DNA from: Thermoflexia bacterium
Lineage (GTDB): Bacteria; Chloroflexota; Anaerolineae; B4-G1
NCBI GenBank assembly: GCA_011192155.1
Contig: DUEK01000018.1
Location: forward strand, 1-45,756
Direction: 5' to 3'
DNA: 45,756 bases
Shown here: piece by piece, positions 18,513 to 23,650 of the stretch
Position numbering within the stretch: position 1 is the stretch's first letter
How the letters are laid out: each line of letters opens with the position of its first letter
The notes under the pieces: generated by a model
Told to the model about the DNA's origin: nothing
The model's input: the letters and a program-made list of their open reading frames with translations, nothing else
Databases searched by the model: none
Made by a program: the position numbers and the translations under genes

Positions 18513-18541
18513 TTGACCAAGTACCAATTTGAGTGTACAAT
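18513..18541 (+). promoter_or_regulatory. Sigma70-like promoter candidate for the RAMP operon
   Basis: TTGACC (18513-18518), 17-nt spacer, TACAAT (18536-18541); Shine-Dalgarno AAGGAGG at 18582-18588 before ATG at 18594. Confidence 0.6.
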
Positions 18542-18593
18542 CTACAAAGACTTGCGATAATGTTCAGTTTGAGATAAAGATAAGGAGGTTGTC

Positions 18594-21500
18594 ATGATTT
18601 TGCAAGGTAAGCTCCACGCAGAAACACCAATCTACAGGGGCAACGCGCGCAAGACCCTCTTCACCAGAGATGGAGACGGCAAACATCGTCTGGTCTCCCT
18701 GGCGGGCGAGATTTCAGGGACGGCTCAGTCATTGATGGACGCCTTTATCGGCCAATCGCGCAACGGTAAAAACATTGGCCTGCTCGACCAACTGTGGCTG
18801 CGGCTCTACGACTTGCCAATGCCCAAAGACCTCATCGCCAGAGTGGACTGCCAATTGCAGGAAGAAAGCTACCCGCCCGATCACCTCTTTGATATGCGCA
18901 TGGGCATCAAGCTGGACGAGGACCGTTGGGCCGCGATAGCGAACGCCAATTACAAGATGGAGACCATCTTTCGCAACTCGGTCTTTGGTATCTCCCTCGC
19001 CGTAGATGATTCAGTCCTGGGGAAGGGACAGAACAGAGACCGGCTATATTACCTCCTGCGCGAACTGCAAGCGGGGCGGTTTTGGTTCGGAGCCGGCAAG
19101 AGCAAGGGGCTAGGGCGCGTCCGCCTCGAAATGGACCTGCCGTTTTCTCCCTCCAACAAAATCCCCGCCCTAAACCCCCACGCTAATCACCTTCAACTAT
19201 CTCTGACCTTTGACGCCACGAACCCCGTCCTGGTCGGTTGGAACTGGGGCAAGGTGGACCCGGCTGTGCCCTCTTTCGCCGCCATCGAGGGCCGCGTGCT
19301 GGTGGGAGCGATGCGCGATCTGCCGGACCCCATCCGCGAGCGGCTAGAGATGGGATTGGCCGGGCCGATTCTCAACCCAGAAGATTGGAAGCGCAAATTC
19401 GCCCAGTATCTTCCCAGAGTCATCGCCATCTGGCTACGGGAACGCTCCATCGGGGAAACTGACGTTTGGACTCTACCGGCTGCGGCGTTGAAGAAATTGG
19501 GCAAGGGTAAGTGGGGGCTTTCCAAAAAAATACTCCAGCGAGTCGAGCCTCTGGTCGGGCAATCTTTCCCCAGCCAAGAGGCGGCCAAGGCCGCTTGCGA
19601 GAAGGCGCTCGAAGACAAGGCCAACATGGCCGGCCGCATCGTCAAAGCCATGAAACGGGAACGTCGCAAGAGCGAAGAACTCGACACCGCTGCCTGGCGC
19701 GAGATCGCCGAGGGGTTGGGGCTGGACATCGCCCTGGAGGAGAGCCTGGCAAAGCGGGTCGGTAGCGAAGAGTCCCTGGTCAAGATACTGACCTCGGCGT
19801 GTGAAAAGATACTCCCCCAACTCTACCAGCAGGTGGATCAACAGGTCAACTTGATTCAGAGCGATGCCTGGGTAGACGCCGAGATCAAGAACCGCACGGA
19901 ACACTTGCTGATTAAAAAGATGTTGCTCCAGGGAGAGATTGACGAGCGTCAGTGGGGCAAAACTGACCAGGTCCCAGAGGGCGTCAGCCCGGCGACGTGG
20001 CGCGAATTTGTCAACGATCACCGGCGGGTGAGATACCGCCACATGAAACATCCTCGGAACTTGGGCAAGAGCATCACCAACGACGAGAACATGATCGCCT
20101 TCCTGGAAGGGCATCGCGACCGCGCCCGCCAGGAGCTATCTCAGCCGTACCACGTCGATTTCCGCGCCGGCGGGCCATCCAAGCGAGAAGTCTCCCGCAA
20201 GTACGGCAAGCCCTACGACACCGTCTTTATGCGTATGCTGTCCTGGGCGCCGTCCTCACGCGAGCAAGGCGCGTGGGAGATATATATCCCAGGCAGCACG
20301 ATCAAGGGCGCCTTCAGAAAACGAGCCTCCCAGGTGCTAAAAACTCTGTGGGGTGAATCTCGCCGGACGAACGATGTGTTGGACACTCTCTTTGGCGCTC
20401 AGGGACAGCGCGGCCTGGTCTTTTTCTCCGACGCTTACCTCACCGACCCGCACGATCCAGAACGAGCCTGGTGCTCTATGGACGGGGTAAAGATGAATCC
20501 CAAGACAGGCTGCCCGGTGGAGGAGGCCAAGCGCGACTATCTCTTTGCTTACGGCAGTCGCCTCGCTTTCCGGCTACGTATAGACCTCATGGACGTTGAT
20601 GAGCGGGACACAGAAGCGCTCTCCGTGTTCCTGCACATGCTCCAGGACTTTCAGCGGGGCGATATCACCCTGGGCGGCGAAAAGACCAGCGGGTTTGGCT
20701 GGGTCGAGGCGACCATAGCCCAACTTGTCTGGTTAACGGCGTCCCCCGCCGGGGTAGGAGAGAGATTGTTCGGGAAACAATCGTTGAGCCAGGACGGTAT
20801 ATGGCAAAAGCTGGAACTGGAAGGGCAAGCGGCCGCTGGCGCGCTGCAAGCCAATCCACTCGCCCTCGAGCAGAAACAGTCTCCGTCAACCCCGCCGCGC
20901 GCCCGAGCCGGCTTTATCTCCCATCGAGCGTTTGGCGGCTATTGCGGTATGTTGGAGGTAGAGGCAGAACCGCTGACGCCCATCCACATACGCGAGAGCG
21001 GCGAACCGTCCCATAGAACCACCCTGGAAGGCGGCCCCGTCAACGGCTGGGATTTCTTCGCTATGGCGCCTCCCGAGGCCGCGCAACGTGGGGACGACAA
21101 AGTCTACGCGCTCCCCAGCCAGAGCATCAAGGGTATGTTGCGCCATCTCTACACCATCGCCAGCGATTCTCGAGAGCACAGCGCCGACATCGCCCGCTTG
21201 AACCCGGTGGACAGTCTGTTCGGTTGGGTGGGACAGGGACCTGATCAGGCTATTATGGGGCGCTTGTCCTTCACCTTTGGTCTGTTCGACGAACCCCAGT
21301 TGGCCTGGTTCAAAGTGCCCTACCCTTACGGCGAATGGCGCTACGCCGGCGATCAGTGGAAGCAAGCGGCGGATAGCTCTGCCGCCAAGATGCTCGTCAG
21401 CAAAACCTGGCGCGTCTTTCCTCACGCTCCACTGGCCCCAATCGTCAAACAGTTGGCCGGTTTCCAACCCGATACCTTCCAGGCCCGTTACTTTAGGGCC

Positions 21501-21809: not shown

Positions 21810-22671
21810 TTGGGTGCGCCGCAGCCGGACCGGCGCCGAGTTGCTGGCTACCCTGGAATACCTCAAAACCAGGCCCGATATCTTTGCCGCCGGACAAGAT
21901 ATCGGGCCGCCTCAATCCGCCCTCGATGGCCCCTGCCAACGCTGCCGGGTCTATGCCCGCCTTCCCAAACAAAATTACTGTCAGGCGTGTCAATCTATCC
22001 TGACCAGAGCCGGGCGGTTGGGCAAACGCTCCTATTCGGCCATCGTCGTATGGGGTTTCGTCAATCGGCTGCCACGGCAACTGTGGGCGGGTGAAGGGTT
22101 TTACGAGAATCACACCTGGGGCGATTATGTTCTCGACGAACATCACTTCTTGTTGATGATGCACCGGCGCGAGCTAAAGCCCTGGCTCCAGGAACTCGCC
22201 ATTTACCACGGGTCTGATTTAACAGGCGTGCTCCAGGTGTTCCCCACGAGCGGGGTGAAATTCGAGGGCGCTATGGGAGACATCCTGTGCCGAGCGGCCC
22301 ACCAGGAGACGCGCTTTGCTATGGACCGCCTGCACCTTCGTTTCTTTTCCGCTTCTCATCAACTCTTGCATCCGCACACGCGCGACCATAAGGGTTTGCT
22401 CACGTTCGAGATCTCTGATTTCTTGAGCCTGCTGGAGGCAGCGGCGGTCTTTCGGACATTGATGCGTCCTGAGGAACAAGAATCCCTCTACGAGTTGGTG
22501 AGCCTGGAGGATCCCCGCGAGGAACAGTTTTACTGGGGCCGGTTTATGGGCGCGTTAAGTCAAGAGACCAGGGATATGTTGAGCGCGTGGCGGGTGCGTC
22601 AGTGGCCAAAGAATCGAATCAAATTGTTGTACGAACTCATCGACTATGTGGGCTTTTACCAGACCAATTAG
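21793..22671 (+). CDS. Hypothetical zinc-ribbon protein in the RAMP operon
   Basis: CQRC-x11-CQAC near the N-terminus; start overlaps the preceding stop by 17 bp, suggesting translational coupling. No family recognised. Confidence 0.8.
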   Translation: MLSSFDWVRRSRTGAELLATLEYLKTRPDIFAAGQDIGPPQSALDGPCQRCRVYARLPKQNYCQACQSILTRAGRLGKRSYSAIVVWGFVNRLPRQLWAGEGFYENHTWGDYVLDEHHFLLMMHRRELKPWLQELAIYHGSDLTGVLQVFPTSGVKFEGAMGDILCRAAHQETRFAMDRLHLRFFSASHQLLHPHTRDHKGLLTFEISDFLSLLEAAAVFRTLMRPEEQESLYELVSLEDPREEQFYWGRFMGALSQETRDMLSAWRVRQWPKNRIKLLYELIDYVGFYQTN

Positions 22672-23650
22672 ATTCATCCGTTATCTCTTCGTGTGGCGAG
22701 TCAACGGTTCGCTGGCCCGGATTCCTCGGTGTTTGTCCGCCGAACTCTCCTTGTTCTTGGGGAACACCATTGCCAGCCGCCTTCCGACCCGTCAAGCCAG
22801 CCCCTGGCGCAAGAGTTTGTCGCCCTGGGACCGGTACGGCGGCCTGTCACTCGTCGGGAAAAAGATCAACAAAATACCAGAGGCGTCGTGGCCGGTCGAA
22901 ACAGTCATCTTTGCCTACCCGGGCAAGCTGACCTATGGGCCGGGAGAACTGATCTTTTGGGAACTCAAGCTCATGGGCGAGAGCGCCGATCACGGGTTCT
23001 TCCTGGAAGTTATCCTGCCGGCGGTGGAGGAAGCGGGCCGCCTCTCTGACCAACGCTGGCAGCGGCTAAACAGACTCTGGGGCCAATTCGAGGTTCACGC
23101 CGTCTATGCGGCGCGAGGCCCCCGTTGGGAGCCTATCGTGAGCGATGGGCGATTGGATCTGGACTATCGCGTCACCTCTACCCAGTGGGCCGAGGGGCTG
23201 ACCTTTGGCGCAGAGTCGGAGCGCATATTTGATCGCCTGACTTGGGTGACGCCCTTCGATTTATCAGACGACGCGGGAGGCAGGCGCAGACGCCGCCGCA
23301 GAAAACGTCCCAGGAAAAAAGACGCTCCCAACCTCCAGGAGATACTAGAGGCCCTGACGGTTCGTATGAGTCAATTATTGCCGGGCAAGCATCACACGCC
23401 CGAGGATGTGTGGGATGCTCTGAGCGAGGAAGAGCAGGCCTCCCTCCGGGCCGCGATGGAACAAGCCACCCGCATCCCCGTGCACCACGCCAACCTCGAA
23501 GGCGCCCCCAAACATTGGCCTGGTCGCTGGATGGGTACACAGATTTTCCCGTCCATCCCACGTCCTATCGTTCCCTATCTCGAACTGGCATCCCTACTCC
23601 ACATCGGGAGGCAAACCCACTTTGGGTGCGGGACTTTTACGATAAGCTGA
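22646..23650 (+). CDS. Cas6-like RAMP protein (CRISPR endoribonuclease Cas6 C-terminal-domain type)
   Basis: C-terminus IVPYLELASLLHIGRQTHFGCGTFTIS matches the Cas6 pattern (L..LL.lg.llHiG..T.FG.G.y.I). Upstream LTWVTPFDL and NLQEILEALTVRMSQLL segments also fit. Arg-rich insertion GGRRRRRRRKRPRKK. 26-bp overlap with the upstream gene. Confidence 0.75.
   Translation: MWAFTRPIRFIRYLFVWRVNGSLARIPRCLSAELSLFLGNTIASRLPTRQASPWRKSLSPWDRYGGLSLVGKKINKIPEASWPVETVIFAYPGKLTYGPGELIFWELKLMGESADHGFFLEVILPAVEEAGRLSDQRWQRLNRLWGQFEVHAVYAARGPRWEPIVSDGRLDLDYRVTSTQWAEGLTFGAESERIFDRLTWVTPFDLSDDAGGRRRRRRRKRPRKKDAPNLQEILEALTVRMSQLLPGKHHTPEDVWDALSEEEQASLRAAMEQATRIPVHHANLEGAPKHWPGRWMGTQIFPSIPRPIVPYLELASLLHIGRQTHFGCGTFTIS

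What the first reader, a model, noticed from the sequence alone, without database searches (positions are those of the whole stretch)
18513..23650. Stand-alone three-gene RAMP operon: multi-RAMP fusion, zinc-ribbon protein and Cas6-like protein, with no Cas10 or adaptation genes
Seen: three genes with 17-bp and 26-bp overlaps, one strong SD and one sigma70-like promoter, so a single transcription unit. Established knowledge: glycine-rich loops and IPGSxxKG motifs are typical of RAMP/Cas7 proteins, and the C-terminal HIGRQTHFGCGTF pattern is typical of Cas6. The flanking genes are a conserved hypothetical and a methyltransferase/FemAB cluster, and I see no cas10, cas5 stand-alone gene, cas1/2 or array anywhere in the 45 kb. 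Inference: a minimal Cas10-less, signalling-free RNA-guided effector with its own processing enzyme, or a RAMP system repurposed away from CRISPR.
Basis: partly seen in the sequence, partly recalled or inferred. Interest (0 to 1): 0.93.

Follow-up and report, generated by a model that had tools for sequence, protein, structure and literature searches.

The report
Subtype III-I CRISPR effector, no array
This three-gene cluster is a member of a recently named bacterial RNA-guided RNA-cutting CRISPR subtype (III-I); what is unusual, and not stated in the main text of the paper that named it, is that none of the roughly 130 copies examined sits near the CRISPR guide array it should need.

Summary
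The three overlapping genes at 18594-23650 are real and conserved, but not a new system. NCBIfam names all three, far above curated cut-offs: Cas7-11i (1906 bits, full length), Cas10i (461) and Cas6i (301), i.e. CRISPR-Cas subtype III-I (Makarova et al., Nov 2025, PMC12669027). The 'zinc-ribbon protein' is a shrunken Cas10: its AlphaFold2 model (pLDDT 90) matches large subunits of type III (Csm) complexes as its best PDB hits. So 'no Cas10' is wrong; 'no signalling, no adaptation genes, no array' holds. The cassette is common in the host's class (34 of 396 genomes). New here: in 136 related loci (about 1.1 Mb of flanks, a few loci counted twice) I found no CRISPR array and no conserved neighbour, while the same scan found arrays at 12 of 35 other cas loci from III-I genomes. 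III-I genomes have Cas1 exactly as often as others (59% and 59%), and perhaps more often another type III system; the window's genome has a III-A locus on another contig. Best reading: an RNA-guided RNA cutter that borrows crRNAs made elsewhere, probably matured by Cas6i. Use of non-CRISPR guides is not excluded. No wet-lab study of III-I was found in the library.

The parts
18513..18541 (+). sigma70-like promoter match TTGACC-17-TACAAT for the operon
   Evidence: 10 of 12 consensus positions; consensus match only
18582..18588 (+). Shine-Dalgarno AAGGAGG of the first gene
   Evidence: read directly
18594..21809 (+). cas7-11i, 1071 aa: three Cas7 (RAMP) domains (about 1-230, 520-745, 780-1071) with a helical Cas11-like segment (about 262-515) after the first
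   Evidence: NF049957 1906 bits, 1-1076 of 1076; PF03787; AlphaFold2 pLDDT 75; Foldseek: III-E gRAMP/Cas7-11 from E 2.5e-18, then III-D Cas7; domain limits by motif and secondary structure
21793..22671 (+). cas10i, 292 aa: reduced Cas10 with invariant zinc ligands C48, C51, C63, C66; no GGDD
   Evidence: NF049958 461 bits; AlphaFold2 pLDDT 90.5; Foldseek ranks 1-14 all chains of Csm complexes of Cas10/Csm1 size; invariants in 35 sequences
22646..23650 (+). cas6i, 334 aa: Cas6-type pre-crRNA endoribonuclease; invariant H116, H319, H325 and C-terminal glycine-rich loop
   Evidence: NF049959 301 bits; PADLOC Cas6 5.5e-11; 29-sequence alignment

Best explanation
The locus is a complete subtype III-I CRISPR-Cas effector cassette in a Chloroflexota MAG (phylum inferred from nearest relatives). 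Cas7-11i, a fusion of three Cas7 domains and a Cas11 segment, binds a crRNA and cuts complementary RNA at up to three sites. Cas10i caps the complex as a structural subunit that has lost the catalytic palm, so no cyclic-oligoadenylate signal is made. Cas6i matures the guide. Because the cassette has neither an array nor Cas1/Cas2 nearby, the guides are supplied in trans from arrays elsewhere in the cell. Shown: gene identity, conserved order, Cas10 and Cas7-11 folds, absence of arrays and adaptation genes around the cassette. Inferred from the families: crRNA binding, RNA cleavage, loss of signalling, guide maturation. Inferred here: guide supply in trans.
For: NCBIfam full-length hits; published description of III-I; folds; catalytic GGDD absent from Cas10i while Cas7-11i is conserved at 67% mean column identity across phyla and Cas6i histidines are invariant; no true array in 136 related loci against 12 of 35 control cas loci; other type III RAMPs in 23 of 34 III-I genomes against 182 of 362 others, p 0.07; arrays elsewhere in several III-I genomes; III-A locus in the window's own genome.
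Against: No array was found in the window's own genome with the one repeat class searched; G106 and G267 (91% and 94% complete) show no Cas1, no Cas2, no Cas3 above cut-off and no RAMP beyond what III-I itself gives, so a trans donor is not always visible. Nearly all hosts are MAGs, and CRISPR loci are easily lost in assembly or binning. Activity is untested, and the Cas7 aspartates were placed by motif spacing only.
Confidence: 0.62

Rival explanations
1. III-I has dedicated arrays, but they lie far from the cassette or fell on unassembled contigs, so it is an ordinary CRISPR system with a split locus.
For: Arrays break assemblies; many III-I contigs end within a few kb of the cassette; nearly all hosts are drafts.
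Against: 17 genome loci have at least 5 kb on both sides and none has an array; partial arrays at contig ends were detected in the control loci but at no III-I contig end.
Confidence: 0.2
2. The cassette has left CRISPR: Cas6i and Cas7-11i load another class of small RNA and act in regulation or RNA processing.
For: No array in any of 136 loci; no association with Cas1 (59% against 59%, p 1.0); strong conservation of Cas7-11i; two genomes over 90% complete without other detected CRISPR genes.
Against: No conserved non-coding DNA or conserved neighbour gene beside the cassette; no Rfam hit in the window; weak excess of other type III systems in the same genomes; one copy lies on a plasmid-like contig, which fits defence.
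Confidence: 0.12
3. An inactive relic of a type III system.
For: Cas10 has lost its catalytic motif; two of the genome loci have a broken cas7-11i frame (L045, L051).
Against: Three intact overlapping frames kept across several phyla with many invariant residues.
Confidence: 0.04

Closest known systems
CRISPR-Cas subtype III-I (Makarova et al. 2025, PMC12669027; NCBIfam NF049957, NF049958, NF049959)
   Same: All three proteins, the Cas7-11i architecture, the diverged Cas10 without a working palm, phyla (Chloroflexota, Thermodesulfobacteriota).
   Different: Nothing that I could test; the systematic lack of arrays is not stated for III-I in the paper's main text, whose figures and supplement I could not see.
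Subtype III-E, Cas7-11e/gRAMP
   Same: Single multi-Cas7 fusion protein; best Foldseek matches.
   Different: NF041225 gives only 46 bits against a cut-off of 700; 1071 aa against about 1600-1700; Cas10i present. III-E also works with TPR-CHAT/Csx29 (general knowledge); no conserved neighbour of any kind was found beside III-I.
Subtype III-D (TIGR03986, Csx7/Cas7-2x; PDB 8s9t)
   Same: Sequence kinship of the Cas7 domains; named as the origin of III-I in the 2025 paper.
   Different: Separate genes and a full-size Cas10 in III-D.
Subtype III-G
   Same: Reduced, signalling-free type III without arrays; crRNAs proposed to come in trans.
   Different: Multi-subunit, Sulfolobales only, predicted to cut DNA through the HD domain of Cas10.

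Membership tests
Subtype III-I | Cas7-11i: one protein with three Cas7 domains and a Cas11 domain | tested here: met
   NF049957 1906 bits over 1-1076 of 1076, cut-off 800; three glycine-rich Cas7 C-termini and a helical middle segment; domain count by motif and secondary structure
Subtype III-I | Extremely diverged Cas10 without a working cyclase | tested here: met
   NF049958 461 bits, cut-off 175; Cas10/Csm1 fold; no GGDD in the sequence
Subtype III-I | Cas6i in the operon | tested here: met
   NF049959 301 bits, cut-off 160
[quoted passage not shown]
   D28, D542 and D820 are invariant or nearly so in 33-47 sequences, but their equivalence to the Csm3 catalytic aspartate rests on spacing to the Cas7 motif; the model is weak there
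Subtype III-I | crRNA-guided RNA cleavage | not testable with these tools
   needs biochemistry
Subtype III-E | Four Cas7 domains, insertion in the last Cas7, no Cas10 | tested here: not met
   46 bits against 700; Cas10i present
Ordinary CRISPR-Cas locus | Adjacent CRISPR array or adaptation genes | tested here: not met
   no array in the window or in 136 related loci; no Cas1 or Cas2 in the host MAG

The most novel reading that the evidence does not exclude
Subtype III-I is a standing, array-free RNA-guided RNA nuclease whose Cas6i captures and processes non-CRISPR transcripts as guides, so that a type III effector has become a regulatory or housekeeping RNA-silencing machine in Anaerolineae and sulfate reducers.
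Probability: 0.12. Interest if true: 0.87.

Novelty: new member of a known kind. Interest (0 to 1): 0.42.

Why it matters
III-I is a compact multi-Cas7 fusion effector (1071 aa here against about 1600-1700 for III-E Cas7-11), and no experimental study of it was found. The survey adds a concrete, testable puzzle: a widespread effector (8.6% of a 396-genome sample of its class) that keeps its own Cas6 but was never found next to an array. Where its guides come from can be settled with one small-RNA pull-down.

Tried and rejected
DNA search of the operon in plasmids and protein searches in plasmids and phages: no match. Viral contigs: no relative. Conserved non-coding guide within 1 kb of the cassette: only coding ends align. 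The stable hairpin upstream (window 18388-18450) shows no conservation beside other cassettes. Apparent arrays in L021 (repeats run through the whole 66/67-nt period), L035 and L036 (irregular or 45-nt spacing) and L269 (plasmid iterons) are not CRISPR. Conserved neighbour gene: none; the largest clusters are response regulators and glycosyltransferases.

Full report
What is there. Three genes on the + strand, 18594-21809, 21793-22671 and 22646-23650, overlap by 17 and 26 bp, with AAGGAGG five bases before the first ATG and a promoter-like match at 18513-18541.

What they are. NCBIfam release 20.0 (June 2026) names all three: NF049957 type III-I gRAMP effector Cas7-11i (1906 bits, cut-off 800, full length), NF049958 Cas10i (461, cut-off 175), NF049959 Cas6i (301, cut-off 160). 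Pfam and PADLOC see only the RAMP and Cas6 signals and nothing for gene 2. Subtype III-I was defined in Makarova et al. 2025 (PMC12669027): three fused Cas7 domains plus Cas11, an extremely diverged Cas10 recognised by structure only, more than 160 genomes, mostly Thermodesulfobacteriota and Chloroflexota, predicted RNA cleavage.

Independent tests. I aligned 35 Cas10i, 33 Cas7-11i and 29 Cas6i sequences from loci fetched here. Cas10i folds with pLDDT 90.5 and its 14 best PDB matches are all Csm-complex chains of Cas10/Csm1 size, although E-values are modest (2e-3 to 4e-2, probability 0.97-1.00); a profile search finds no PDB sequence relative, as the paper says. Its zinc ligands C48, C51, C63, C66 are invariant. 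Cas7-11i models at pLDDT 75 with weak loops and matches III-E gRAMP structures first, then III-D Cas7. Cas6i keeps H116, H319 and H325 in all 29 sequences.

Distribution. The genome scan gave 52 loci, 51 usable; the class-wide search found the cassette in 34 of 396 genomes over cut-off. A tree of 47 Cas7-11i sequences has the Chloroflexota label strongly clustered, with most Thermodesulfobacteriota nested among Chloroflexota, so at least one transfer between phyla is likely. The window's own nearest relatives are Chloroflexota (best 75% identical).

No array. In 56 genome-derived loci (511 kb of flank, 17 with at least 5 kb on both sides) and 80 metagenome loci (613 kb) no CRISPR array was found; a tolerant scan flagged two places, both other kinds of repeat. 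Some loci occur in both sets (for example L198 and L048), so 136 counts a few twice. The same scan on 35 other cas loci from III-I genomes (19 Cas1 loci, 16 RAMP loci) flagged 13, of which 12 look like arrays and one (L277) like a tandem repeat. Fisher tests: 0 of 56 against 5 of 16 type III loci, p 3e-4; against 7 of 19 Cas1 loci, p 3e-5. Flank lengths differ between the sets, so these p values are approximate. No neighbour family recurs beside the cassette in a fixed position.

Trans supply. Cas1 occurs in 20 of 34 III-I genomes (59%) and 213 of 362 others (59%). Other type III RAMPs (more than two PF03787 matches, since III-I itself gives one or two) occur in 23 of 34 against 182 of 362 (p 0.07). 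A search for repeats ending TTGARAC matched 20 of 50 III-I genomes; several of these are clear arrays, others chance or tandem repeats. The window's MAG (83% complete) has no Cas1, Cas2 or Cas3 above cut-off but a III-A set on contig C170 with Cas6, Csm1-Csm5 and Csm6, no array on that 10.5-kb contig. G106 and G267 have no other CRISPR gene among those searched; a type I Cas3 hit above cut-off is present in G261.

Verdict. Membership in III-I is close to certain (about 0.97). The mechanism as a whole is put at 0.62 because guide supply is inferred. The finding is not a new kind of system, but the array-free habit is a specific open question that the main text of the 2025 paper does not raise for III-I; its figures and supplement were not available to me.

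Noticed in passing
18226-18377: About 150-bp element with inverted ends (CTGGAGTCTGGC...GCCAGACTCGAG), 33 further copies in the same genome, most 98-100% identical: MITE-like, directly upstream of the operon.
   Followed up: partly
11145-11293 and 14613-14761: A second, different 149-bp element with inverted ends (CTCAGTAGATCCAAA...TTTGGATCTACTGAG), two copies 98% identical, flanking about 3.3 kb.
   Followed up: partly
L058:6936-8306: In the host's III-A locus Csm5 carries a C-terminal cold-shock (CspA/CspE-like) domain, residues 390-456; a possible new fusion.
   Followed up: no
L058:979-1854: Csx14-like protein with a C-terminal LuxR/sigma-70-like helix-turn-helix beside the III-A genes.
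   Followed up: no
L269:1000-8026: III-I cassette on a contig with plasmid iterons, RepA, ParA and a tyrosine integrase: probably a plasmid-borne III-I.
   Followed up: partly
30554-45409: Two very large minus-strand ORFs (2998 and 1907 aa) made of many imperfect repeats, probably surface proteins.
   Followed up: no
L056: A 612-bp contig labelled Piscirickettsia salmonis encodes a fragment 44% identical to Cas7-11i residues 208-285; perhaps contamination.
   Followed up: no
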